From Pyrococcus horikoshii OT3 (GTDB lineage: Archaea; Methanobacteriota_B; Thermococci; Thermococcales; Thermococcaceae): 64,000 nucleotides of DNA. Of the stretch, positions 1,768-19,303 are shown piece after piece (positions within the stretch are counted from its first letter, which is position 1; the number at the start of each line of letters is the position of its first letter). Both the position numbers and the translations under genes were made by a program. The notes beneath the pieces are model-generated. The model searched no databases. It worked only from the letters and a program-made list of their open reading frames with translations, and had not been told where the DNA came from. The stretch covers positions 978,662 through 1,042,661 of the forward strand of contig NC_000961.1 in assembly GCF_000011105.1 (NCBI RefSeq), given 5' to 3'.

Positions 1768-2664
1768 TTGAAGAATTCTAGGCCATATTTCCATAGATTC
1801 ATGGTAGATTTTATCAACGGATCTTCACCTACCGAGGTATTAAAGTTGGCCTCCAACACCGTTGATGATTTTGTAAAAGAGTTGATCTCCATATTTGAAT
1901 TAAAGGATTATAAGGTTAAATTTATGGCAATTGACGACTGGGATCACGCCGAAGGAGATAAGTTAGTAATTCTCCCGTACAGCGAGATAAGCGAGGATGG
2001 AAGGATATATTTTCTAAGTGCTGACATCCTTGAGGCCATGGATAATCCGGATCTTGAAAAATTGAAGCTGCTATCCTGGGAAATGATTCTTGGAAGAACG
2101 AGCTATATATTATACGAGAACTTTGAAGAGGTTAGGAAGTTTGAATTTAAAGGAGATGTGATAATACTTGCCAATCTCTTAGCTTCATCAACGCTGATAA
2201 GGATAGAAGACATTAGAACACTACTCGCGGTTCTGGATGCAAAGTTAAAGACGATTAGGTTAGAACTTGAGAGTCTAGAGGATCTAGAGGGAATGGAAGT
2301 CTTGAACTTTACTGAAAGAGAGTTGCTTTTTAACGATGCGAGGGCAAAGGTGATAAGAGCTAGTGTGCAGTTCATAGATGCTGCAATTCTTAGCTGGATG
2401 GCCATGCAGTCCCTTTCATTAGCTCCCCTTCTTCACCCTGAGGAGGAGATAATTAGGATCGTTAAGAAGAGCCTGTTTGAAGACGGCCTTCTTGAAAAAC
2501 CTGGGGAAATTTTTCAAGCTGTGTTAGGATTTTATGATTTGCTAAAAGCTATGAACAGAGGAAAAGGGCCCGAAATAGTCGAGATAGGGGATAAGATAAT
2601 GATGTACAGGCAGAAGTTGGGTCTTGACTACTATCCCTCAACCCAGGATATAATGGTAGGCTAG
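1768..2664 (+). CDS. Uncharacterised protein, probably Thermococcales-specific
   Basis: I do not recognise this family. The protein is soluble and mostly helical by inspection, with acidic stretches, no membrane segment and no cysteine motif. The longest frame opens with ATG at 1753. However, the bases right after that ATG form a strong ribosome binding site (GGAGGGGG, 1755-1762) placed 5 nt before an in-frame TTG at 1768, so I start there (298 residues). A TATA-like TTTATTAA at 1723-1730 puts the transcript start near 1753, which would allow either a leaderless ATG start or a 15-nt leader to the TTG. It stands alone between hom (divergent) and the RNA methyltransferase. Confidence 0.7.
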   Translation: MKNSRPYFHRFMVDFINGSSPTEVLKLASNTVDDFVKELISIFELKDYKVKFMAIDDWDHAEGDKLVILPYSEISEDGRIYFLSADILEAMDNPDLEKLKLLSWEMILGRTSYILYENFEEVRKFEFKGDVIILANLLASSTLIRIEDIRTLLAVLDAKLKTIRLELESLEDLEGMEVLNFTERELLFNDARAKVIRASVQFIDAAILSWMAMQSLSLAPLLHPEEEIIRIVKKSLFEDGLLEKPGEIFQAVLGFYDLLKAMNRGKGPEIVEIGDKIMMYRQKLGLDYYPSTQDIMVG

Positions 2665-2698
2665 AAAGCATTATAAAACCAATGTCAAACCCCAAGAT

Positions 2699-4051
2699 AT
2701 GGAGCTGTTTTACAGGGTTACTCTCCATGAGATAATAGCAGATGCTCTAACCCTCATTGAGGAGAGGGAACTTTCATCGAAGCATGCCCTTGAAAGAGTA
2801 TTTAGGAGAGTAGAAGGAAAGGATAAGGAAACAGCGAGAGGCATAGCTCATGCCTACGTTTTTGAAATAGAAAAGTGGAGGGCCAAAATAGACTTTATAC
2901 TAAACTCAGTTCTCAAGGGTTCTAGGGTTGAAGATCTAGATACCTATCTAGCAAACTTGCTTAGGATAGGAACCTTTGAGATGAAGTTTAAGGGAGTTAA
3001 CCCAGCCATAGCCACGGATTCCGTGGTTAGGGTCGTGAAGGAGAAGTTCGACCTGACGAGGGCCAAATTCGCCAACGCAGTTCTAAGGGAAGTGGAGAAG
3101 TTCAACGTTGAAAGGGCCCTCAAGAGGCTGAAAGAGAGGGATAGAATAGAATGGCTCTCGGTAAGGTTTTCTCACCCAAGATGGTATGTTGAGTATGTGG
3201 TCAAACTTTTAGGTTATGATGAAACGGTTAGACTGTTGCTCAGCAACCTAAGGCCTCAGAGGTATTATATAAGGGTTAACACGCTGAAGGTAGATGTTGA
3301 TAGGGTTAAAAGATACTTGGAAGAGAATGGGGTAAGGGTCTCGCTAACTCCGGTTGATGACGTTCTAAAGGTTTTGGAATATGAAAAGCCTGTTACCAAG
3401 CTTGAATGGTACAGGAAAGGTTACTTCGTGATTCAAGACTTAGCCTCTGCATACGTGGCCCACGTTCTAAATCCAGAACCTGGAGAGAGAGTTCTAGACT
3501 TAGCGGCCGCCCCAGGAAGTAAGACCTTCCATGCAGCAGCTCTCATGGAGAACAGGGGAGAAATAGTTGCCGTAGATTACTCTTATGATAGGCTAATAAA
3601 GATGAGAGAGAGAATGAAAAAGCTTGGGGTTAAGAACGTTAAGCTCGTTCATGCGGATGGACAGAGTTACACAGAAAAGGAAAAGTTCGACAAGATAATC
3701 CTGGATGCACCCTGCTCCAGTTCTGGAACCTACAGGCAGTTTCCAGAGGTTAAGTGGAGGTTTAATGAAGAAAAGATAAAAAGGGTGATAAGCGTTCAGA
3801 GGAACATGCTCATTAATGCATACAGGAATCTTGCAGGCGGAGGAGAGATGACTTACTCAACTTGCTCGATCAGAATAGATGAAAACGAGCAAAATGTCCT
3901 CTTTGCCATAGAAAAGGGTTTAGAGCTTGTTGATTATCCCTTTGAATGGGGAGATAAAGGATTTCTGGAAATAGGGGATAAGGTGTTTAGAACCTGGACT
4001 CATAAGCATGACTGTAACAGTTTCTTTATAGCCAAACTCCGCAAACCTTAA
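2699..4051 (+). CDS. RNA (cytosine-5) methyltransferase, NOL1/NOP2/Sun (RsmB-like)
   Basis: SAM-dependent m5C methyltransferase acting on rRNA or tRNA; the substrate cannot be told from sequence. The N-terminal 130 residues resemble the NusB-like RNA-binding domain found in RsmB. The C-terminal Rossmann domain has the SAM motif VLDLAAAPGSKT (about residue 262) and the two cysteine motifs of the family: DAPCSSSG (motif IV) and YSTCSI (motif VI, catalytic cysteine). At 450 residues it is full length for an RsmB-type enzyme. ATTATAAAACC at about 2669-2680 lies a TATA distance from the ATG, suggesting a leaderless transcript. The stop codon touches an inverted repeat that precedes the next gene. 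Confidence 0.9.
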   Translation: MELFYRVTLHEIIADALTLIEERELSSKHALERVFRRVEGKDKETARGIAHAYVFEIEKWRAKIDFILNSVLKGSRVEDLDTYLANLLRIGTFEMKFKGVNPAIATDSVVRVVKEKFDLTRAKFANAVLREVEKFNVERALKRLKERDRIEWLSVRFSHPRWYVEYVVKLLGYDETVRLLLSNLRPQRYYIRVNTLKVDVDRVKRYLEENGVRVSLTPVDDVLKVLEYEKPVTKLEWYRKGYFVIQDLASAYVAHVLNPEPGERVLDLAAAPGSKTFHAAALMENRGEIVAVDYSYDRLIKMRERMKKLGVKNVKLVHADGQSYTEKEKFDKIILDAPCSSSGTYRQFPEVKWRFNEEKIKRVISVQRNMLINAYRNLAGGGEMTYSTCSIRIDENEQNVLFAIEKGLELVDYPFEWGDKGFLEIGDKVFRTWTHKHDCNSFFIAKLRKP

Positions 4052-8084: not shown

Positions 8085-9125
8085 ATGAATTTAAGGGGGA
8101 AGATGATAGTCATCAAATTTGGTGGAAGTTCACTTCGATCTGAGTTTAAGAGTGCAGTTTCCCTAATAAAGGCTCTTTCGGAAGAAAAAGATGTAGTAGT
8201 TGTCGTATCGGCTTTAAAAGGAATAACTGACTTGCTAGAAAAGTACACAGATACTTTTGATTCTAGATACGCGGTTGAGGTCTCAAAAACTTATCTAGAG
8301 TTTGGGAAGAGGATGGGGATAGATACTTCCAGTCTATCCCCTTATCTTAAGCAATTATTTAACCCACCAGATCTTCCTCCTCAAGCCCTCCGGGATTATA
8401 TATTAAGCATTGGAGAATTACTATCAGCAGCAATGATTGCAGAGAAGGCAAATGGTGCTGTTATTTTTCCCTGGGACCTATTTGTAGCCCACGGAAGCTT
8501 TGGAAATGGATTTATAGACATCAAGAAGAGCAAGAGAAATGTCAAATTAGTCAAAGAAGCTCTAGAGTCTGGAAAGATTCCAATTATCCCAGGATTTATT
8601 GCAAACCTCAATGGATACAGAGTCACACTAGGTAGGGGAGGAAGTGACTATTCAGCAGTAGCATTAGGTGTTCTATTAAATTCAGAGCTCGTTGCTATAA
8701 TGAGTGACGTTGAGGGCATATTCACTGCAGATCCAAAGATGATTCCATATTCCCTCCTGATTCCGTACATGTCCTATGATGAAATCTTAATAGCTTCCAA
8801 ATATGGAATGGAGGCAATCCAATGGAAAGCTGCAAAGTTAGCTAAAGAATATGAAGCTCTTATACTATTTGGAAGAGCCAGTGACTGGAGAATGGGAACT
8901 GTGGTGAGCAATAGTTCCTCTCATATGCCCCTTTTAAGCTATGACCAAGGTAAATTGCTAGTTATGAACATGGACTCTGAGATACCTTACGAAGTGGTAG
9001 AGGAGGGAGAATTTTGGAGAGTTTATAGGGTTCCTAAACGTGATTCCATAAAAATTATTAAGGAACTACACAGGAAGATAATCTATCAAGAAAATGCACA
9101 GCTTCTTGGGAGGGTTAAAGCTTGA
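8085..9125 (+). CDS. lysC: Aspartate kinase
   Basis: Phosphorylates aspartate, the first step towards homoserine, threonine and methionine. KFGGSS (about residues 11-16) is the aspartokinase signature. LGRGGSDYSAVALG and SDVEGIFTADPKMIP complete the amino-acid-kinase core (to about residue 280). The C-terminal 65 residues do not look like the tandem ACT domains of allosteric aspartokinases, so feedback inhibition may be absent or atypical. The start could be ATG 8085 or ATG 8103; the TATA at 8065-8073 slightly favours 8103. It opens a three-gene operon; its TGA overlaps the TTG start of homoserine kinase. Confidence 0.93.
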   Translation: MNLRGKMIVIKFGGSSLRSEFKSAVSLIKALSEEKDVVVVVSALKGITDLLEKYTDTFDSRYAVEVSKTYLEFGKRMGIDTSSLSPYLKQLFNPPDLPPQALRDYILSIGELLSAAMIAEKANGAVIFPWDLFVAHGSFGNGFIDIKKSKRNVKLVKEALESGKIPIIPGFIANLNGYRVTLGRGGSDYSAVALGVLLNSELVAIMSDVEGIFTADPKMIPYSLLIPYMSYDEILIASKYGMEAIQWKAAKLAKEYEALILFGRASDWRMGTVVSNSSSHMPLLSYDQGKLLVMNMDSEIPYEVVEEGEFWRVYRVPKRDSIKIIKELHRKIIYQENAQLLGRVKA

Positions 9126-10003: not shown

Positions 10004-11004
10004 AAGTCGCCGTTCTTGGGGCCACGGGAGTTGTTGGAAGAACTTTCGTAAAGCTTCTTGAAAATCATCCTTGGTTTAAAGTTGAAAAGCTAGTAGCTTC
10101 TGAAAGATCGGCCGGCAAACGATATGGAGAAATCGTTGAAGATTCCCCGGAAGAATTCAAGGATTACACGATAATAGGTCTTAAGGAATTCCTTGAGGAT
10201 CCTGGGGTTGATCTCGTATTTAATGCCCTCCCTGCATCGATATCAAAGGAGGTAGAAGAGAAACTTGCACAGGAAATTCCAGTTTTCACAAACGCAAGGA
10301 GTCACCGCTATGATGAAGATGTTCCAATTTTAGTCCCAGAAGTGAATAGTGATCATTTAAAGCTTGTAGAAGTCCAGAGAAAGCGGAGGAAGTGGAGGGG
10401 GTTCATAGTAACTAATCCTAACTGCTCGACAGCAATACTTACTGTTTCACTAGCACCCCTCAGGGCCTTTGGCATAAAGAAGGTTAGGGTAGCTACGATG
10501 CAAGCTATTAGCGGAGCTGGGTTCTCTGGGCTTTCAGCCTATGCAATTCACGACAACGTTATACCTTTTATAAATGGAGAAGAGTGGAAAATAGAGAACG
10601 AAAGCAGAAAAATACTCGGTAAATTTACTGGAGATAAAGTAGAACCAGCCGAGATAGAGGTAGCTGCAATAGCTACGAGGGTTCCAGTTCTACACGGGCA
10701 TACTGAAGCGGTCTTCGTTGAGCTTGAAAAATTTGATATCGAAGAGATAAGGGAGGCATTTGAAAACTTTGATCCCCTTAGAAGCCTTGAGCTTCCATCG
10801 TATGAAAAGCCCATAGTATATACAGAGATTCCCCAGCCGAGATTGCATAGAGATAGAGGAAAAGGGTTAACAGTTACAGTGGGTAGACTTCAAGAAATAT
10901 CAGGAGGTATAAAATATGTTGTTTTAGGCCATAATTTAGTTAGAGGAGCTGCAGGGGGTTCCATCCTTAATGCTGAGCTTGCTTATAAACTGGGAATAAT
11001 ATAA
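10000..11004 (+). CDS. asd: Aspartate-semialdehyde dehydrogenase
   Basis: Reduces aspartyl phosphate to the semialdehyde with NADPH. The Rossmann motif GATGVVGRTF is at residues 7-16. The catalytic cysteine sits in TNPNCSTAI (about 142-150), and the histidine region is VPVLHGHTEAVFVE. The 334-residue size and the motif spacing fit the archaeal/fungal-type enzyme. The ATG overlaps the upstream stop (ATGA). The gene order lysC-thrB-asd, plus hom at 0.7 kb, supplies every step from aspartate to phosphohomoserine. A run of A after the stop (11004-11012) is the only terminator-like feature. Confidence 0.95.
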   Translation: MKVAVLGATGVVGRTFVKLLENHPWFKVEKLVASERSAGKRYGEIVEDSPEEFKDYTIIGLKEFLEDPGVDLVFNALPASISKEVEEKLAQEIPVFTNARSHRYDEDVPILVPEVNSDHLKLVEVQRKRRKWRGFIVTNPNCSTAILTVSLAPLRAFGIKKVRVATMQAISGAGFSGLSAYAIHDNVIPFINGEEWKIENESRKILGKFTGDKVEPAEIEVAAIATRVPVLHGHTEAVFVELEKFDIEEIREAFENFDPLRSLELPSYEKPIVYTEIPQPRLHRDRGKGLTVTVGRLQEISGGIKYVVLGHNLVRGAAGGSILNAELAYKLGII

Positions 11005-11016
11005 AAAAAAGTAAGG

Positions 11017-12033
11017 TTAGATATCCTTTAAAGTCCTGAATTCCGTTGTTTTCTTACCTTCCCTTTCCAACTCCTTTCTCACAAGTTCAGTTGCCTTAAC
11101 CATGTTAACCAACTTATTATAGGCTATATTCCTATCTAGCAACTTCATGCCACAATCAGGATTTATGTAGAGCAATTCTGGTTCCACGTACTCAAATACC
11201 TTCTTAATCGCTTTTACAATTTCTTCAACGCTCTCTATCCTGGGATTATGTACGTCAACAACACCAAAGCCAAGCTCCTTATTGGAAAGTTTCTTTAGGA
11301 AGTCCATATCCCTAAACTGTCTATTCGCGAACTCAAGGGCAAACTGGGTTACCCTAATCTCATCAAAGTAATCGGCGAGTAGGTAATAGTTGGAGTAGCA
11401 AACATGGAGTCCAACCTTTATCTTGATACCCTTCACGGCCTTATTTATTGCCTCAACCGCTAATGGAACTTCGTCTGGATGGTTTAGCATTGCTGGTTCG
11501 TCAAGTTGGATGTAAAGGGCTCCATGATTCTCAAGCATCTTGAGTTCTTTATTTATTATCTTAGCTAGATCCATGATAAAACTCTCCTTATCTGGGTAAT
11601 ATTCGTTAAAACTCCACTCAGCAATTGTGTAAGGTCCAGTTATTGGGATCTTAACGACCTCACGCGTAGTGTTCTTCTTTACCCAGAGAAATTCCTCAAG
11701 AACCAAGGGTTCCTTGTACTCAAGTTTGTCAACGGCCGCGGCCTTATTGAAGTAGGCATTACCCCAAACCCTAACTGGACCGTAAAACTTGAAGCCACCT
11801 ATCTTAGCGGTAAAGTGCTCTGTCATCTCAGTTCTCCACATTTCACCATCCCAGGGAATATCTACTCCTGCTCTCTCATGCTCTCTAAGCACGGAAACGC
11901 TTGCATCCTTAACTGCTTCTTTAAAGTCCTCTTCTGGTATCTTTCCCAAGTCCCTGAGCCTGTACATCCTGAGTAACCACCTTGGCTTCGGATAGCTCCC
12001 AATAACGCTTGTAGGTAATATGGGAAGCTCCAT
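11017..12033 (-). CDS. Methionine synthase, catalytic (MetE C-terminal-like) protein
   Basis: Transfers a methyl group to homocysteine. The protein corresponds to the C-terminal half of cobalamin-independent MetE and keeps the zinc ligands: HVC in GLHVCYSNY (about 209-217) and the cysteine of INPDCGMKLL (about 293-302), with QLDEPAML before them. It lacks the N-terminal half that binds methyl-tetrahydropteroyl-polyglutamate in bacteria. Such short archaeal enzymes are thought to use another methyl donor, for example a methylated corrinoid protein; the donor here is unknown. It is last in a four-gene methionine operon (spacings of 2, 1 and -4 nt). Confidence 0.9.
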   Translation of the reverse strand: MELPILPTSVIGSYPKPRWLLRMYRLRDLGKIPEEDFKEAVKDASVSVLREHERAGVDIPWDGEMWRTEMTEHFTAKIGGFKFYGPVRVWGNAYFNKAAAVDKLEYKEPLVLEEFLWVKKNTTREVVKIPITGPYTIAEWSFNEYYPDKESFIMDLAKIINKELKMLENHGALYIQLDEPAMLNHPDEVPLAVEAINKAVKGIKIKVGLHVCYSNYYLLADYFDEIRVTQFALEFANRQFRDMDFLKKLSNKELGFGVVDVHNPRIESVEEIVKAIKKVFEYVEPELLYINPDCGMKLLDRNIAYNKLVNMVKATELVRKELEREGKKTTEFRTLKDI

Positions 12034-12035
12034 CC

Positions 12036-12965
12036 TTACTCACCCCCAAGTCTTCCCAAAAGCTTGAGCTTCTTCCAGGCCACCCTCTCAGGTAAGAAAT
12101 CTAAGAGGGTGTTTGGGGTTACGTAAACCTTTTCGAATTTCCTAATGTACTTTCTAAGCTTGTCTTTCAGTCTATCTGCTCTTTCCATCTTAGTTTCTCT
12201 AGCGTTAACTATTCCCAACCCTACTTCCCCTTTAACCTCATCGGGAACGTTACCTTCTATGAGATCAATGTTAAGGATCACATCCTTGGGAACCACCTGA
12301 GGAGTTCCAAAGTACGTGACTACCCAGAGCTTCTTCACCCTTGCAAGGTCTTCAATTACCTTCTTGGCAACTTCTTTACTCACGTGTTCCTCTGATTCTC
12401 TGGTTGCCTTAGAAAGCTCCGCTGCGAGAGAGGGTTCTTGTAGCTCCATAATCTTAACATCAAGTTCCTTAATAAGCTCCCTTAAGACGGTGGCATAGGC
12501 CTCTGTAAGTTCGTTTAAATCCTTATAGTATTCGTTTATCGAGTGATAAGCTAAAGTTACAGGCCCAGGGAGTACTGCTTTGAGTTCTGCCTCTGGATAG
12601 ACATCTTCCTTTATTTCCTGGGCTATACTTATCCATCCTGGAAGTGGGTTCTCCTTAAGCGATAACTCCCCCCTAACTACTGGAGAGCGATAAAAGAAGT
12701 TATTCTCATAAAATTTGAAGAGCCCATTAACCTCTACACCGTCTATAAATCTTATTAGGGGGTTAAATATATCATCCCAACGATAGAGACCATCTGTTAT
12801 CACCTTTATTCTAGCTTTTTTGAGGTTTTCAAACGCTTTCCTTGTATAGCTTCTATAAGCTTCTTCAAGCTTCTCTTCACTTAATCTTCCTATCGAGTAT
12901 AGCTCTATCTTTTTGGCTAATCCTATAGGCCTTGGAAGGCTACCTATAAGGGCCGGGACTATCAC
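12036..12965 (-). CDS. MetE-like paralogue without the zinc site
   Basis: A 309-residue TIM-barrel protein related to its downstream neighbour (both begin with a GS(Y/L)P(K/R)P segment and share GP-T-A and L-EP motifs). The zinc ligands are replaced: the HVC region reads VVTYFGTP and the PDC region reads VTPNTLLD. It resembles the N-terminal half of MetE in that respect and may bind the folate or another methyl donor for the catalytic subunit. I infer a two-subunit MetE; no direct evidence is available from sequence. Spacing to the neighbours is 1-2 bases, so stoichiometric expression is likely. Confidence 0.82.
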   Translation of the reverse strand: MIVPALIGSLPRPIGLAKKIELYSIGRLSEEKLEEAYRSYTRKAFENLKKARIKVITDGLYRWDDIFNPLIRFIDGVEVNGLFKFYENNFFYRSPVVRGELSLKENPLPGWISIAQEIKEDVYPEAELKAVLPGPVTLAYHSINEYYKDLNELTEAYATVLRELIKELDVKIMELQEPSLAAELSKATRESEEHVSKEVAKKVIEDLARVKKLWVVTYFGTPQVVPKDVILNIDLIEGNVPDEVKGEVGLGIVNARETKMERADRLKDKLRKYIRKFEKVYVTPNTLLDFLPERVAWKKLKLLGRLGGE

Positions 12966-12966
12966 C

Positions 12967-13977
12967 TCAAACCACCTCCTTCACGAGTTCTAAAGCTTCT
13001 TCAACTTTTTCCATCCAATCATCAGCGAATACTATGAGATTTATTCCAGCGAACTCGAGACTCGAAACCTCCTCCAAGACCTCTTCAAACTTACTACCAA
13101 CCTCCACGCCCATACTCCTAAGGGCGTTTTCAAGCTCTTTTTTTATCGGATAGAGCAGAGAAACCACAATTGGAACTTCCCTGCTTGAATATTTCAAAGA
13201 ATGCTTAACTATCTCTGGAATTTTCCTGGCTACTTTAACATTCGCAACAACTTGGGTAAATACAACGTCTACCCCGGCTATGATCTTTCTAGCTAATCTT
13301 TTTCCTTCAAGTTTCTCTTGATAGTTTGGATTCATGGTTCCAGCTACGAAGGGCCTCTCTTTTACCTCAATTTTCTCTCCAGTTGGTAGAATTCCAGAGA
13401 ATACTAGCCTGGCTAGCTTTATCATATTAGTAGAATCTAGATCGAATACTGGCTTTGCATGTAGCATTAATCCCGGCCAGTCACCCGTTGTTAAAAGGAC
13501 ACCTTCAAAGTTAAATTCAACTGCGGTTCTAAGCTCTGAGGTAATAGCTAAGGCATTCCTATCCTTTCCAGTTACATGGGGCATAACCTCAAATCCCTTG
13601 GATTTCAACCAAGTAGCCAAAGCTACCGATGATACATGTGGATAGCCTAAAGGGTTGTCGGGGACGGTAAATAAGTATCCGTTATCCTTAAAGTCCTTAA
13701 ATCCGCTTTCAAAAACCCTAATAGGAAATTCCACTGAGATTGCCCGTCCTTTCTCCAAGTCCTTTATAAATTTACTCTTTTTAATCTCTACATCATCTTC
13801 TAAGGTAAATCTAGCTACTATGGGATGCTCCACTAACAAAGGAGCTCCATCTAAAGTGTCTAGCTTCTCGAGAACATAAACCCATGGGCAGGGCTTTTTG
13901 CTTACCCTACAGGTCCCATTAAATACATCTCCACAGGGGCCGTTAAGCAACTTCTTTGGACAGCTTAAGATCCTCAT
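12967..13977 (-). CDS. Methylenetetrahydrofolate-reductase-like protein with N-terminal MetV-type zinc domain
   Basis: Probably supplies the methyl group for methionine. Residues 1-40 (CPKKLLNGPCGD...CRV...CPWVYVLEKL, with cysteines near 6, 15, 23 and 30) match the MTHFR C-terminal (MetV-like) cysteine domain. The remainder (about 65-336) looks like the MetF TIM barrel, with ISVEFPI, VPDNPLG, HVTGKDRNALAI and LLTTGDWPG. The order is reversed relative to proteins carrying the cysteine domain at the C-terminus. It shares an ATGA overlap with the upstream transsulfuration gene and a 1-base gap with the MetE-like genes. The electron donor and the true pterin are unknown. Confidence 0.82.
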   Translation of the reverse strand: MRILSCPKKLLNGPCGDVFNGTCRVSKKPCPWVYVLEKLDTLDGAPLLVEHPIVARFTLEDDVEIKKSKFIKDLEKGRAISVEFPIRVFESGFKDFKDNGYLFTVPDNPLGYPHVSSVALATWLKSKGFEVMPHVTGKDRNALAITSELRTAVEFNFEGVLLTTGDWPGLMLHAKPVFDLDSTNMIKLARLVFSGILPTGEKIEVKERPFVAGTMNPNYQEKLEGKRLARKIIAGVDVVFTQVVANVKVARKIPEIVKHSLKYSSREVPIVVSLLYPIKKELENALRSMGVEVGSKFEEVLEEVSSLEFAGINLIVFADDWMEKVEEALELVKEVV

Positions 13978-15089
13978 TTAACCACCTCCAGGGCCTTATC
14001 CAAGTCTTCTAGAAGCTCATCTAGAGGCTCTAGACCAACAGAAAGCCTTATTAATCCCTCAGTTATCCCAAGAGCTTCTCTCTGTTCTTCGTTTATGTAT
14101 CTAGCAGCGCTCTTTACAGGATATGTGACTATACTCTCCACACCTCCCAGAGAAGGTGATGGGAATATCTTTTTAATGGACCTAAGGAAAACTATTGCAT
14201 TGGACTCATTACCAACATCAAAAGAAACTACACCTCCGTAGAGATCCCTCTCAAAGAGCTTCTTAGCTATCTCATGGTAGGGGTCATCCTCGAGTCCAGG
14301 GTAATGAACTTCTTTAACTTTTGGATGCTCAGATAAAAATTCAGCTATAGCTTGAGCATTTTTGCTTTGTCTCTCAAATCTAACTTCAAGGGTTCTCATT
14401 CCTCTTTCAATCATCCAGGCATCAAATGGTTGTATTATACCTCCAAGCCTTCTTCTCCAGTTCCAAAGATCGTGAATAAACTCTCCATTCCAGAGAATAG
14501 CGCCTCCTAACACGTCATTGTGCCCAGCTATGTACTTAGTTAAACTATGAACGACAAAATTTGCTCCATCCTTTAGGGGCTTGTAAAGGAGGGGAGTTAC
14601 GAAAGTATTGTCAACTACAAGGATAGTCTCAACTTCTCTGCACCTCTTTGCAACTTCTCTAACATCAATAACCTTAAGGGTTGGATTTGTCATGGTTTCG
14701 ATTAGCACTAGCTTAGTCCTCTCGTTTATTTCCTCAACTATATCCTCAGCTCTCGGATACGCCAGCCGTATCTTAACTCCGAACCTCCTACCTATGAGCC
14801 TTGCGAGCTCTATTGTAGTTCCATACCCCTCCATGGAGAGAACAGCTTCATCTCCAGCTTCAAGAAATGAGAAGTATAAAGTAGCTATAGCTGCTATTCC
14901 ACTATTGAAGGCTAGAGCATTATCAGCCCCTTCAAGTTTGGCTAGTTTATTCTCTAGGTTTAGGACTGTTGGGTTTTCCTCCCTAGAGTACTTTAACTCG
15001 GTATTCCTAGGTGTCAAATATGCTTCACCTACTTGCCTGAAAACGGCAGTTAAGTAAAGAGGCTCGTGGAGAGGCTTCAATCTCGCCAC
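13974..15089 (-). CDS. Cystathionine gamma-synthase/lyase family PLP enzyme
   Basis: Trans-sulfuration enzyme. The PLP lysine is in HSLTKYIAGHNDVLGG (about residues 180-195), with the family motifs NSGIAAIAT near the N-terminus and SVGLEPLDELLEDL near the C-terminus. It may act as gamma-synthase, gamma-lyase or O-phosphohomoserine sulfhydrylase; operon context with methionine synthase favours homocysteine formation. The longest frame starts with GTG 15089, but GAGGGGTG overlaps that codon and is correctly spaced from the TTG at 15080. A TATA-like ATATAAAT at 15110-15118 puts the transcript start near 15088. It is the first gene of the methionine operon. Confidence 0.9.
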   Translation of the reverse strand: MARLKPLHEPLYLTAVFRQVGEAYLTPRNTELKYSREENPTVLNLENKLAKLEGADNALAFNSGIAAIATLYFSFLEAGDEAVLSMEGYGTTIELARLIGRRFGVKIRLAYPRAEDIVEEINERTKLVLIETMTNPTLKVIDVREVAKRCREVETILVVDNTFVTPLLYKPLKDGANFVVHSLTKYIAGHNDVLGGAILWNGEFIHDLWNWRRRLGGIIQPFDAWMIERGMRTLEVRFERQSKNAQAIAEFLSEHPKVKEVHYPGLEDDPYHEIAKKLFERDLYGGVVSFDVGNESNAIVFLRSIKKIFPSPSLGGVESIVTYPVKSAARYINEEQREALGITEGLIRLSVGLEPLDELLEDLDKALEVVK

Positions 15090-15109
15090 CCCTCAAAGGT
15101 TCTCGAATC

Positions 15110-15118
15110 TATTTATAT
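15110..15118 (-). promoter_or_regulatory. TATA box of the methionine operon
   Basis: On the minus strand GATATAAATAG lies about 26 bases from 15088. No clear operator-like palindrome is visible beside it. Confidence 0.45.
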
Positions 15119-15125
15119 CTTTTTC

Positions 15126-15698: not shown

Positions 15699-16124
15699 GT
15701 TCCAATAAGACTAAAATAGAATTGAAACTTCTGGAGTGCAAAGTTTGGAAAAGGCTTGAATGGTGTTCCAATAAGACTAAAATAGAATTGAAACAGGCTT
15801 TTATTGAGCGTTGGTTTGTTATTTTTAGTTCCAATAAGACTAAAATAGAATTGAAACCAGTTTAAGCTTAACCTCCCACCTGTGAACGTTGAGAGTTCCA
15901 ATAAGACTAAAATAGGATTGAAACTTCACGGCTGGTTGGAGGGTACTAGTCTATGATATGCGTTCCAATAAGACTAAAATAGAATTGAAACTGGAGCGAT
16001 GGCTCTCGCACTCGGTCTCTTGTTCAGCGTTCCAATAAGACTAAAATAGAATTGAAACCATAGCTAGGAATCTTGGCTTTCTCTGGAGAAGGAGGTTCCA
16101 ATAAGACTAAAAAAGAATTGAATT
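15699..16124 (+). CRISPR. CRISPR array, 7 repeats and 6 spacers
   Basis: Repeats of 30 bases start with GTTCCAATAAGAC and end with AGAATTGAAAC. They begin at 15699, 15765, 15828, 15895, 15962, 16029 and 16095. Spacers are 33-37 bases. The fourth repeat has an A-to-G change at 15916. The seventh has a T-to-A change at 16113 and a damaged end with GAATTG duplicated, so it marks the leader-distal end. The leader is therefore on the low-coordinate side. No cas gene lies within the window; processing would need Cas6 encoded elsewhere. The repeat type is the one shared across Pyrococcus and Thermococcus. Confidence 0.97.
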
Positions 16125-16168: not shown

Positions 16169-19100
16169 TCAAACGGCCCTCCAGAACGGATCTTCCTTTG
16201 CCTTTACTTGGGCTATCATCTTCAAGGCCTTAATATCTGTATCCTCCAGGACATCCCTAAGATGCTTCAATAGTATTATTGCATCATCCCTGCTTAAGTC
16301 AACGTACAGAGTTTCTCCTGGATGAATATGCCTTCCAACTATAGCCCCCTCTATTGCTATTGCAACTGCTTGTCCCTTTCTAGCTTCCTGGAGAAATTCA
16401 TCTCTGCTCTTTATTGACCTTATAGTTCCAACCTTTTGGCCGTTCTGCTTTATCAGCGTAACACCTGGCTTTATTCTTCCCTCCAAAACTTCAATTCCAA
16501 CTATTGCTGGATTACTTCTTCTGAAAACGTACCTCTCATCCGGATACAATTTTATTACACCAGGGAACGTCACCTTTGCAAGTAACTCTCTCTTCCTCTT
16601 CTCCTCTTCCTCTTTTATCCAAGCTTCATAATCCTCTATGAGCTTATATATTATATTCCCGACGAATATCGGGACTTCCTTGGCCTTTGCAACTTCTTTT
16701 GCATCTTCGTTAACTTTCACGTTAAAACCTAGGATTACCCCATACTTTGGGTTCTCCTCTTTTACGCTGAGAGCCTCCATAACGTCTGTTTTACTTATGT
16801 TTCCTACGTCAGCTTTCCTTATAGGTATTTCCTTCTCCTGGAGCTCTTTGCTTAATGCTTCCAGGCTTCCCAGGGTATCGGCCTTCACTATAACCCCAAC
16901 TTTATCAGTGCTTATGACGACGCTTTCTATTTGCCTCATTATCTCCTCCTTCGCCCTCTCAACATCTTCGGGCGTGGGGGCAGCTATAACGGGAGAACCT
17001 GCAAGGGCTTCCTCGAGCCCAGGAGCAGCTATCTTTACACCTGCTGCGGCCGTAACTTCATCCACGTAGTCGAATCTGAACCTTGGATCTCTTATTTCAT
17101 CCAGTGGTTTAGGCTTAAGTAAAGCCCTAACCTTCGTGACTATCGCTTTATCTTTTCCTCCAACGACGATCGTGTCATCCTTGTGCAGGGTTCCATCGTA
17201 TATTATCACGTCTATGGTATGCCCCAAACCTGGTTCTTCCCTAACTTCAAGTATGGTTCCCCGGGCCGGACCTTCCACTTCAATCTTTAGCTTCTCCTCA
17301 AGGTACTTTTGAGAGAGTCCCGCTATGAGAACTAGGAGTTCCGCTATTCCAATTCCGTATTTTGCCGAGATTGGGACTATTGCTAATTCCCTCGTAAAGT
17401 TCTGGACTCTATCAAAGCGATTCGCTTGGAAGCCGAATTCGTAGAATTTTCCTATAAGTTCCCAGAGCTTCGTCTCAAGCTCTTGAATAGCCCTCTGATC
17501 TTGCCTCTTTATGTTCATTAGGAATGGTTCATCCTCCTCAATCACCCAACCCCTTATCCTGTCTATCTTGTTGGCCGCAACTACGAACGGCGTTCTATAC
17601 CTCCTCAATATTTCAATGCTCTCTATAGTTTGTGGCTGGAAACCTTCGTTTACATCTATAACCAGAACTGCTAAATCGGCTAAGCTTCCTCCTCTAGCCC
17701 TTAGGCTAGTGAAAGCCTCGTGTCCGGGAGTATCTATGAAAAGTAAACCTGGAAGTCTTATCTCGGCCTTCCAGAGCTTAATAAGGGGTCCAGCTATCTT
17801 CTTGACTACATCTATTGGAACTTCCGTAGCTCCAATGTGTTGCGTTATCCCACCGGCTTCCTTGGCCGCGACGTTCGTCTTTCTGATTTTGTCCAGCAGG
17901 GTGGTGTTGTGAACTAAAATTCCGTTTGCAATGAAGTTGTGAGTCTCCGTGGTTACATCATAAACGTAGCCATCATATTCGAACTCTTCTATTTTCTCAA
18001 CTGGGAGAAAAACGAAGTTTTCAATAATATTCCTGAGGTAGTTCACATCCCTAGAGTCGAATTCTCTGTTGCGCCAAACTTCGAGGAGCTCCTTTCCAAG
18101 TTCGGTAAGCTTCCCATCCTTTATTAACCCCTCCCTTTTAAATTCCTCTATATACTCATGGTCTCTGACCCTACCCTCAAGGATGGTAATCTTTTTGTTC
18201 AGGTCTTTTGATCCCTTTTCAATGGTATTAAGGATCTTCATCAGGATTTCATAGCTTGGCGCCTCCTTGGACTCGTATTTACTATAGAGGGGGATCGTTG
18301 AGCTAAGTTCTGCTCTTGTGAACCCGAAGAGCAGTCTTATACGTCTTAACTCTTCAAAGATCGGGTAACTCTCACTATTTTCGCTTCTTCTAATGATCCC
18401 CTCTAGTTCTTTTGCTTTCTGCTTTTCTGAGAAGCCAATGTACCTCCTAAAGAGCTCAAGGTTCCTTCTTCCAGATATTGCAAGACTTGTAGGATAGATC
18501 TTTGAGACTATCCCTAACCGGAGAAGGATGAGGGAGAGCTCCTCCAGTACCTCGTGAGGTGCTCCCCTTACCTCAACCCTCAATTCTTCGCCATTTACAT
18601 AACCATTAATATCAAAGAATCCCCTTAGAAAGTTAGCAACGTATCTGACTGGGGCCATGAAAAGTACCCTTAGGACTTCCCTGGGATACTCAAATAGTAC
18701 TTTAAATAACTCAAGCAAAGCTTTTACTTCATGAGTCAGTCCTTCAGGATTAACACTGTTTTCTCTACCAAATATAGTTCCCGCAAAGTAGAAAAAGGTT
18801 TCCCATTCCTCATCTGAGCTCGGTAGCTTTATGTGGACTTTCCCCTTAAGTTTTTCGTGCACGTATTGCAAAAACTTTTCCTTATCATCCTTCCCAGGAA
18901 GGATCTTGGGTACCGCAACGTAATCTCCAGGTTTAAGCTGATCGGCCCTAACCCATCCCCTCGTCGTTAAAAATGGATGCTCCGGAGTAACTGCAACGGA
19001 ATGCCAATCTTTTAGTTTAACCCTAAGCATTTTACCCTTATACCTAACTTTCCAAACGTAAGGTCCTTCGAGGAGCCTTACCCTACCATCAACCCCTGCA

Positions 19101-19303
19101 ACTGGCATCCTAATTCCGAGTTTTCTTACCTCCTTCTCCTCATCCTTAAAGACGGTCTCCTTTGTCATGTTAAATAGCTCTTCGAGCGTTATTGGACCAT
19201 AATCTGGAAGTATTACCCTCTCCTCTGGCAATAAACACTTACCATGGTCGACATGACCGAGAACCGCTATAATAGGCTGTCTAATTCTCTTCACATAACT
19301 CAC
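16169..19303 (-). CDS. infB: Translation initiation factor aIF5B (IF-2 homologue) interrupted by an intein
   Basis: Ribosomal-subunit-joining GTPase. The precursor is 1044 residues; removing the intein leaves 600. Extein residues 1-22 end in GHVDHGK, and the chain resumes with TTLLDKIRKT, so the intein splits the P-loop. Other G motifs follow: FIDTPGHEAF (G3) and AANKIDRIRG (G4). Domain II and III and the initiator-tRNA-binding C-terminal domain follow (about precursor residues 690-1044). Without splicing the GTPase site cannot form. It is unlinked to other translation genes here; the CRISPR array lies just past its stop, with the last repeat about 45 bases away. Confidence 0.97.
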   Translation of the reverse strand: MSYVKRIRQPIIAVLGHVDHGKCLLPEERVILPDYGPITLEELFNMTKETVFKDEEKEVRKLGIRMPVAGVDGRVRLLEGPYVWKVRYKGKMLRVKLKDWHSVAVTPEHPFLTTRGWVRADQLKPGDYVAVPKILPGKDDKEKFLQYVHEKLKGKVHIKLPSSDEEWETFFYFAGTIFGRENSVNPEGLTHEVKALLELFKVLFEYPREVLRVLFMAPVRYVANFLRGFFDINGYVNGEELRVEVRGAPHEVLEELSLILLRLGIVSKIYPTSLAISGRRNLELFRRYIGFSEKQKAKELEGIIRRSENSESYPIFEELRRIRLLFGFTRAELSSTIPLYSKYESKEAPSYEILMKILNTIEKGSKDLNKKITILEGRVRDHEYIEEFKREGLIKDGKLTELGKELLEVWRNREFDSRDVNYLRNIIENFVFLPVEKIEEFEYDGYVYDVTTETHNFIANGILVHNTTLLDKIRKTNVAAKEAGGITQHIGATEVPIDVVKKIAGPLIKLWKAEIRLPGLLFIDTPGHEAFTSLRARGGSLADLAVLVIDVNEGFQPQTIESIEILRRYRTPFVVAANKIDRIRGWVIEEDEPFLMNIKRQDQRAIQELETKLWELIGKFYEFGFQANRFDRVQNFTRELAIVPISAKYGIGIAELLVLIAGLSQKYLEEKLKIEVEGPARGTILEVREEPGLGHTIDVIIYDGTLHKDDTIVVGGKDKAIVTKVRALLKPKPLDEIRDPRFRFDYVDEVTAAAGVKIAAPGLEEALAGSPVIAAPTPEDVERAKEEIMRQIESVVISTDKVGVIVKADTLGSLEALSKELQEKEIPIRKADVGNISKTDVMEALSVKEENPKYGVILGFNVKVNEDAKEVAKAKEVPIFVGNIIYKLIEDYEAWIKEEEEKRKRELLAKVTFPGVIKLYPDERYVFRRSNPAIVGIEVLEGRIKPGVTLIKQNGQKVGTIRSIKSRDEFLQEARKGQAVAIAIEGAIVGRHIHPGETLYVDLSRDDAIILLKHLRDVLEDTDIKALKMIAQVKAKEDPFWRAV
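17906..19237 (-). other. Intein in aIF5B, with LAGLIDADG homing endonuclease
   Basis: 444 codons, from Cys23 to Asn466 of the precursor. Splicing blocks: CLLPEERVILPD at the N-terminus, AVTPEHPFLT (block B, with the conserved histidine), and the C-terminal HNFIANGILVHN with the usual penultimate His and terminal Asn, followed by Thr as the +1 residue. The endonuclease motif FLRGFFDINGY lies near residue 225 and a second motif region LILLRLGIVS near 258. The length agrees with the P. horikoshii IF-2 intein as I recall it. Confidence 0.95.

What the first reader, a model, noticed from the sequence alone, without database searches (positions are those of the whole stretch)
11017..15089. Methionine operon with a two-part MetE and a reversed MetV-MetF fusion
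Four coupled genes: PLP enzyme, MetF-like barrel with the cysteine domain at its N-terminus, a MetE-like protein without zinc ligands, and a MetE-like protein with them. Together they suggest a complete folate-to-methionine path in which methyl donor binding and zinc catalysis are on separate chains, and in which the cysteine domain precedes the reductase barrel. The donor (modified pterin or corrinoid) is unknown.
Basis: partly seen in the sequence, partly recalled or inferred. Interest (0 to 1): 0.6.

Follow-up and report, generated by a model that had tools for sequence, protein, structure and literature searches.

The report
Archaeal methionine operon with split MetE
Four adjacent genes in a heat-loving archaeon look like the last steps of methionine synthesis, done by an already described two-piece methionine synthase, together with an unusual one-piece reductase that probably makes its methyl donor.

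Summary
The four genes are real (15089 down to 11017, minus strand; 4-nt overlap, 1-nt and 2-nt gaps): a cystathionine-gamma-synthase-family PLP enzyme, a MetF-like barrel preceded by a four-cysteine module, a zinc-free MetE half and a zinc-site MetE half. The two-part MetE is published as 'split MetE'; the P. furiosus homologues PF1268/PF1269 are reported there to form a complex, with a methyl-pterin donor predicted (PMC7857596). My tests favour a pterin over a corrinoid donor: W561 and the zinc/homocysteine residues are kept in 19 of 19 catalytic halves, and no CdhD or B12-binding_2 match was found in the genome. The MetF fusion is not 'reversed': metV precedes metF in acetogens too; the archaeal chain keeps counterparts of the last 4 of 13 cysteines of one bacterial MetV. 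MetF, N-half and catalytic half match in the same 19 of 115 phylum genomes (two more carry weak matches to the catalytic half only). The fusion is this genome's only MTHFR-family match and no Mer-family match was found. The least described piece is thus this short MetV-MetF fusion, the likely methylene-pterin reductase. Nothing biochemical was tested; interest is modest.

The parts
13974..15089 (-). PLP enzyme, cystathionine gamma-synthase family (Cys_Met_Meta_PP); presumed homocysteine-forming step
   Evidence: PF01053 384 bits; NF006347 630 bits, cut-off 477; upstream of MetF in 18 of 19 loci, in one of them (L012) only a fragment near the contig start; not found in L013
12967..13977 (-). 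MetF-like reductase with N-terminal MetV-type four-Cys module
   Evidence: PF12225 and PF02219 over cut-off; model (mean pLDDT 78.5) Z 21.5, rmsd 2.7, 233 aligned to Thermus MTHFR over residues 67-335
13888..13962 (-). [quoted passage not shown]
   Evidence: four Cys in 18 of 19 members; blast 45% over 38 aa to Acetoanaerobium MetV 157-194; model confidence under 60 here
12036..12965 (-). Zinc-free MetE half (N-half of split MetE)
   Evidence: NF006350 652 bits; Meth_synt_1 43.3 vs Meth_synt_2 40.2 bits; no Cys in 18 of 18; model Z 29.7 to MetE residues 1-358, others tied
11017..12033 (-). Catalytic, zinc-site MetE half of split MetE
   Evidence: NF003317 514 bits, cut-off 406; H641, C643, E665, C726, S433, E484, D599, H694, W561 (E. 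coli numbering) kept in 19 of 19
15109..15125 (-). Candidate archaeal BRE/TATA element (GAAAAAGATATAAATAG), 20-36 nt before the GTG start; judged by eye
   Evidence: sequence, position; not tested for function

Best explanation
This is the Thermococcales methionine operon. The PLP enzyme makes or helps make homocysteine. The MetV-module-MetF fusion reduces a methylene-pterin (methylene group from serine through SHMT) to the methyl-pterin, with a flavin in the barrel and electrons probably entering through the four-Cys module from ferredoxin or another low-potential donor. The two MetE halves form a heteromer in which the zinc half activates homocysteine and holds the pterin ring, and the zinc-free half completes the pocket and helps hold the methyl-pterin. 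Shown here: gene identities, order, co-occurrence, active-site conservation, predicted folds, and no match for the corrinoid methyl-carrier families searched nor for the Mer family in this genome. Inferred: substrate, electron donor, cofactor of the Cys module, and complex formation in this species (reported for the P. furiosus homologues by a paper that I know only through PMC7857596).
For: All four proteins match a family over its curated cut-off. MetF and N-half match in the same 19 of 115 genomes, and the catalytic half in those 19 plus two weak matches of another type, G017 and G019; order MetF-N-C in 19 of 19. The catalytic half keeps the zinc, homocysteine, H694 and W561 residues in 19 of 19 and in both haloarchaeal split MetEs examined. 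The N-half keeps a KFYENNFFY stretch aligned with E. coli K117 and onward in 18 of 18 and a TYFG motif in 18 of 18, against 0 of 19 catalytic halves. MetF barrel: 28 of the first 29 rows of the structural list are MTHFR entries (Foldseek agrees); E. coli MetF H88, D120, R171, K172 and Q183 are matched by the same residue in 19 of 19 in three alignment modes (roles recalled). Own genome: one PF02219 and one PF12225 match, no PF00296 match (Mer family), one SHMT, no CdhD or B12-binding_2 match; the three PF02310 matches over cut-off are two radical-SAM-type proteins and a mutase small subunit by my reading. In Halobellus limi split MetE sits near annotated Mer, npdG and a beta-RFA-P synthase-family gene (Mer NF002619 448 bits).
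Against: No biochemistry. E. coli RELK 17-20 is not kept in the Thermococcales N-half; K117 is Arg and TYFG is YWG in the two haloarchaeal N-halves. The N-half profile scores slightly higher with the C-domain of E. coli MetE than with its N-domain (30.8 vs 24.5 bits), and structural scores for both domains and for MesD 3rpd are close. E. coli MetF E28, Y152 and H156 could not be placed consistently, and R118, D165 and N168 are replaced by T, E and R. PF02219 was reached by 14 of 19 members. The Cys module has model confidence under 60, and the ORF in G110 lacks two of the four Cys. Two sub-cut-off PF02310 matches (L004, L005) were not examined. Natrinema split MetE has no such pterin neighbours.
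Confidence: 0.8

Rival explanations
1. The catalytic half is a core methionine synthase that takes methyl from a corrinoid protein, and the zinc-free half binds that corrinoid protein instead of a pterin.
For: Characterised core synthases use methylcobalamin in vitro (PMC7857596 abstract; PMC7005905 passages); the N-half has lost RELK.
Against: No CdhD or B12-binding_2 match in the genome; the PF02310 matches over cut-off are not methyl carriers by my reading; W561 and E484 are kept, whereas the core-like proteins L044/L045 have Cys and Gln there. Weakening this contrast: no CdhD match in G017/G019, the genomes of L045/L044, either.
Confidence: 0.08
2. The MetF-like protein is not the methyl-pterin source but an accessory or regulatory flavoprotein of the operon, methyl-pterin being made by an unrecognised enzyme.
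For: Barrel is far from E. coli MetF (18 of 19 members give no blast match at E 10, one a match at E 0.31), several E. coli flavin-site positions differ, and half of the Cys module is missing in one genome.
Against: Same 19 genomes as the N-half, conserved D120 and Q183 equivalents, only MTHFR-family match and no Mer-family match in the genome.
Confidence: 0.12
3. The zinc-free half has a separate catalytic role unrelated to methionine synthesis.
For: It lacks the zinc ligands and the homocysteine Glu and Asp.
Against: Lies between MetF and the catalytic half in 19 of 19 loci, in one of them as two frames; PF1268:PF1269 complex reported (cited in PMC7857596); MetE fold over its full length.
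Confidence: 0.05

Closest known systems
Split MetE (Price, Deutschbauer and Arkin 2021, PMC7857596; PF1268/PF1269)
   Same: Two genes for the two MetE domains, in Pyrococcus itself; pterin donor predicted by those authors
   Different: Nothing essential; added here are the residue survey, a model of the N-half and the constant MetF partner in Thermococcales
MetVF-type methylene-THF reductase of acetogens (PMC8760232, PMC8515935; passages seen)
   Same: MetF barrel nearer to an acetogen-type MetF than to E. coli MetF, MetV cysteine motif, and metV-before-metF order equal to the order within the fusion
   Different: One chain; only the last 4 of 13 MetV cysteines have counterparts in the comparison with Acetoanaerobium; in a methionine operon
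ANME-1 MetF proposed to replace Mer (PMC9012536; passages seen)
   Same: An archaeal MetF-type reductase suggested to act where Mer would
   Different: ANME MetF lies next to a separate MetV gene; a possibly catabolic role is proposed there
Haloarchaeal split MetE near Mer (Halobellus limi, L096)
   Same: Split MetE close to a methylene-pterin reductase gene
   Different: The reductase is F420-type Mer, not a MetF fusion; the Natrinema pair (L095) lacks this neighbour

Membership tests
Split MetE (PMC7857596) | Catalytic component of PF1269 type with zinc and homocysteine residues | tested here: met
   NF003317 514 bits, cut-off 406; residues in 19 of 19. The paper's own test (phmmer with PF1269, 200 bits) was not run
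Split MetE (PMC7857596) | Separate protein of at most 400 aa with Meth_synt_1 above cut-off and scoring higher than Meth_synt_2 | tested here: met
   309 aa; 43.3 vs 40.2 bits, cut-off 27; a narrow margin
Split MetE (PMC7857596) | The two chains form a complex | not testable with these tools
   Reported for PF1268/PF1269 in Menon 2009, seen only as cited in PMC7857596
Core methionine synthases MesA/MesC | Gln at the Glu484 position, no MetE N-domain partner | tested here: not met
   Glu in 19 of 19; partner gene adjacent
Core methionine synthases MesB/MesC | CoFeSP (CdhD/AcsD) in the genome | tested here: not met
   No PF03599 match in the own genome at E 0.01; 5 of 14 controls rang, 2 over cut-off
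MetVF-type MTHFR | MTHFR TIM barrel with MetF residues | tested here: met
   Z 21.5, 2.7 A, 233 aligned; Asp120, Gln183, His88 equivalents kept, E28 not placed
MetVF-type MTHFR | Complete MetV subunit | tested here: not met
   Only profile positions 40-80 of 95 are matched in the chain, against 1-95 in Acetoanaerobium MetV; it is the genome's only PF12225 match
MetVF-type MTHFR | Reduced ferredoxin rather than NAD(P)H as donor (as for the C. ljungdahlii enzyme) | not testable with these tools
   needs assay

The most novel reading that the evidence does not exclude
Thermococcales make methyl-pterin with a minimal one-chain MetVF-type reductase (four-Cys module plus barrel) in place of Mer, and pass it to a heteromeric MetE on a folate-like pterin without a polyglutamate tail, possibly within one multi-enzyme complex encoded by the operon.
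Probability: 0.45. Interest if true: 0.5.

Novelty: new variant of a known kind. Interest (0 to 1): 0.3.

Why it matters
Split MetE is known, so its presence here is ordinary. What could matter is the source of its methyl donor: no Mer-family match was found in this genome, and the constant partner of split MetE in the 19 Thermococcaceae genomes is a one-chain MetV-MetF fusion. If that is the methylene-pterin reductase, it fills the methyl branch of the Thermococcales pterin pathway, gives a smaller single-gene system in which to study electron entry into MetVF-type reductases, and fits the observation that relatives lacking one of the three genes lack the others too.

Tried and rejected
Corrinoid donor: CdhD, B12-binding_2, B12-binding and Pterin_bind domains were sought in the own genome. 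PF02310 gave five matches; the three over cut-off are radical-SAM-type proteins (L001, L003) and a mutase small subunit (L002) by my reading; the two below cut-off (L004, L005) were not examined. PF00809 gave one partial match in a TIGR00284 dihydropteroate-synthase-like protein. The hoped-for contrast, core-type L044/L045 with CdhD in their genomes, did not appear: no PF03599 match in G017 or G019, and a weak sub-cut-off one in G032, among 7 genomes searched.

Wider distribution of the MetF fusion: the one genome-contig scan used two short patterns and returned 6 loci, all Thermococcaceae by title; the plasmid collection gave 17 records (15 listed), none covering 80% of the query, the widest 79% at 26% identity in Planococcus. 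Whether the fusion exists outside Thermococcales is therefore open.

PDB sequence search with the single MetF protein gave nothing at E 0.01, with the profile only a rubisco-like match at E 0.048, taken as chance. Placing E. coli MetF E28, Y152 and H156 failed in three alignment modes. The fold of the Cys module (residues 1-64) was not tested on its own; the structural rows cover 65-336. No sigma-70-type promoter or terminator-like site at 10900-11100, which says little for an archaeon.

Literature: ten searches listed no title or abstract on a Thermococcales MetF fusion. Five papers were looked up and answered (PMC7857596, PMC7005905, PMC8760232, PMC8515935, PMC9012536); the other listed ones, such as PMC5736913 (holds PF12225) and PMC5370406, were not opened. 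Subscription papers are mostly not held, so the absence is weak.
Full report
What is there. The window lies in a single-contig genome of 1,738,505 bases; that size is the one I recall for Pyrococcus horikoshii OT3. The six named relatives of the MetF protein are titled Thermococcus or Thermococcaceae. Four minus-strand genes run from 15089 to 11017. They are tightly packed: a 4-nt overlap, a 1-nt gap and a 2-nt gap, with GGAGGTGGT or GGGGGTGA stretches before the three inner starts. By curated models they are a cystathionine gamma-synthase family PLP protein, a protein with DUF5981 and MTHFR matches, a PRK08575-type MetE relative and a PRK04326-type methionine synthase. A convergent cluster of aspartate kinase subunit, homoserine kinase and aspartate-semialdehyde dehydrogenase ends at 11004, so part of the early pathway lies next door.

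The two MetE halves. The 338-aa protein keeps every zinc ligand (E. coli H641, C643, E665, C726), the homocysteine residues S433, E484, D599, and the H694 and W561 positions in 19 of 19 Thermococcales sequences and in two haloarchaeal proteins. The residue roles are those named in PMC7857596 (passages), except H694 and W561, which I recall. The 309-aa protein has none of the zinc ligands and no cysteine in 18 of 18; the nineteenth, L011, was dropped because its gene is in two frames. Its predicted model (mean pLDDT 85.1) aligns over its whole length with residues 1-358 of Streptococcus mutans MetE at Z 29.7, 2.4 A, 293 residues; the MesD-type structure 3rpd (29.0) is tied, and C-domains of MetE follow at 28.2. 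By profile it is slightly nearer the C-domain of E. coli MetE (30.8 vs 24.5 bits). Motifs point to the N-domain: a KFYENNFFY stretch aligned with E. coli K117 and onward (18 of 18), and TYFG (18 of 18, against 0 of 19 catalytic halves), which the Candida MetE N-domain shares as TYFG (alignment) and E. coli as TYFE. The two haloarchaeal N-halves have Arg for K117 and YWG for YFG. The RELK stretch is not kept in Thermococcales; in the haloarchaeal pair the aligned residues end in [DE]-L-K. If, as I recall, Pyrococcus pterins lack a polyglutamate tail, loss of tail contacts would be expected; this is inference.

This arrangement is published. PMC7857596 (abstract, section 18 and passages read) names split MetE, searches with PF1269 of P. 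[quoted passage not shown]

Donor. In the own genome no CdhD match was found (5 of 14 controls rang, 2 over cut-off) and no B12-binding_2 match (9 of 14 controls rang). Of five B12-binding matches three are over cut-off; by my reading of the ORFs they are two radical-SAM proteins and a methylmalonyl-CoA mutase small subunit; the two weak ones were not examined. In Halobellus limi the split MetE pair lies near genes annotated as Mer, NADPH-dependent F420 reductase and a beta-ribofuranosylaminobenzene 5'-phosphate synthase family protein; in Natrinema it has no such neighbours. A pterin donor is therefore favoured. Against over-reading: the core-type proteins L044/L045, which differ at E484 and W561, come from genomes where CdhD was not found either.

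The MetF-like protein. The barrel (model residues 65-336) has an MTHFR fold: 28 of the first 29 rows are MTHFR entries (row 22 is an uncharacterised protein that binds methyl-THF), the best Z 21.5, 2.7 A, 233 residues to Thermus MTHFR, with Mer at Z 16.3 (Foldseek agrees). E. coli MetF H88, D120, R171, K172 and Q183 are matched by the same residue in 19 of 19 in three alignment modes; R118, D165 and N168 are replaced by T, E and R; E28, Y152 and H156 could not be placed. All 19 members match the MetF of Acetoanaerobium noterae (47.0 to 65.5 bits), whereas only one gave even a weak match to E. coli MetF (E 0.31), so the barrel is nearer the MetV-partnered kind. [quoted passage not shown] up to 61% over 36 residues, the weakest E 0.004). 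That MetV has 13 cysteines; the archaeal chain has counterparts of the last four. In Acetoanaerobium metV precedes metF by 20 nt, and PMC8515935 (passages) states that metV lies upstream of metF in MetFV-type homologues. The fusion therefore follows operon order and is not reversed; the words 'C terminal' in the Pfam title make it look so.

Coupling. MetF and N-half are found in the same 19 of 115 genomes of the phylum, and the catalytic half in those 19 and, weakly, in two of another family. The order MetF-N-C holds in 19 of 19; the PLP gene is upstream in 18 of 19, once as a fragment near a contig start and once after a 313-nt spacer. In the own genome the fusion is the only PF02219 and only PF12225 match, there is no PF00296 (Mer family) match while 10 of 14 controls rang, and SHMT is present. 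The simplest reading is that the fusion makes the methyl-pterin that split MetE uses. ANME-1 offers a precedent, as a proposal, for MetF standing in for Mer (PMC9012536, passages). Which electron donor serves is unknown; the C. ljungdahlii MetFV enzyme takes reduced ferredoxin and not NAD(P)H (PMC8515935, passages).

Verdict. Observation confirmed; the headline (two-part MetE) is already known; the fusion is a small variant of MetVF-type reductases whose function here is inferred, and ten literature searches (listed under Tried and rejected) listed no title or abstract on it.

Noticed in passing
window 15699-16124: Seven CRISPR-DR6 repeats form a short array upstream of the operon.
   Followed up: no
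window 16169-19303: Translation initiation factor IF-2-like gene interrupted by an intein-like insert (ends HNFIANGILVHN before TTLLDK, read by eye).
   Followed up: no
L015 (G110) 2482-2794: The MetF ORF lacks the N-terminus with two of four Cys, and a 313-nt stretch separates it from the PLP gene; a perfect 13-nt inverted repeat lies at 2491-2538. Perhaps an insertion.
   Followed up: partly
L011 (G108) 2545-3481: The N-half of split MetE is in two overlapping frames, so broken or a sequencing error, in a genome whose catalytic half is an open frame.
   Followed up: no
L044 121-2517: A core-type methionine synthase relative (Gln at the E484 position) lies next to a HcyBio homocysteine-biosynthesis gene, in a genome without a CdhD match: its methyl donor is unclear.
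   Followed up: partly
window 15109-15125: TATA-like element so close to the GTG start at 15089 that the transcript may be leaderless.
   Followed up: no
window 8085-9125: Aspartate kinase-like protein of the TIGR02078 'putative Pyrococcus aspartate kinase subunit' type, in a gene cluster converging on the methionine operon.
   Followed up: no
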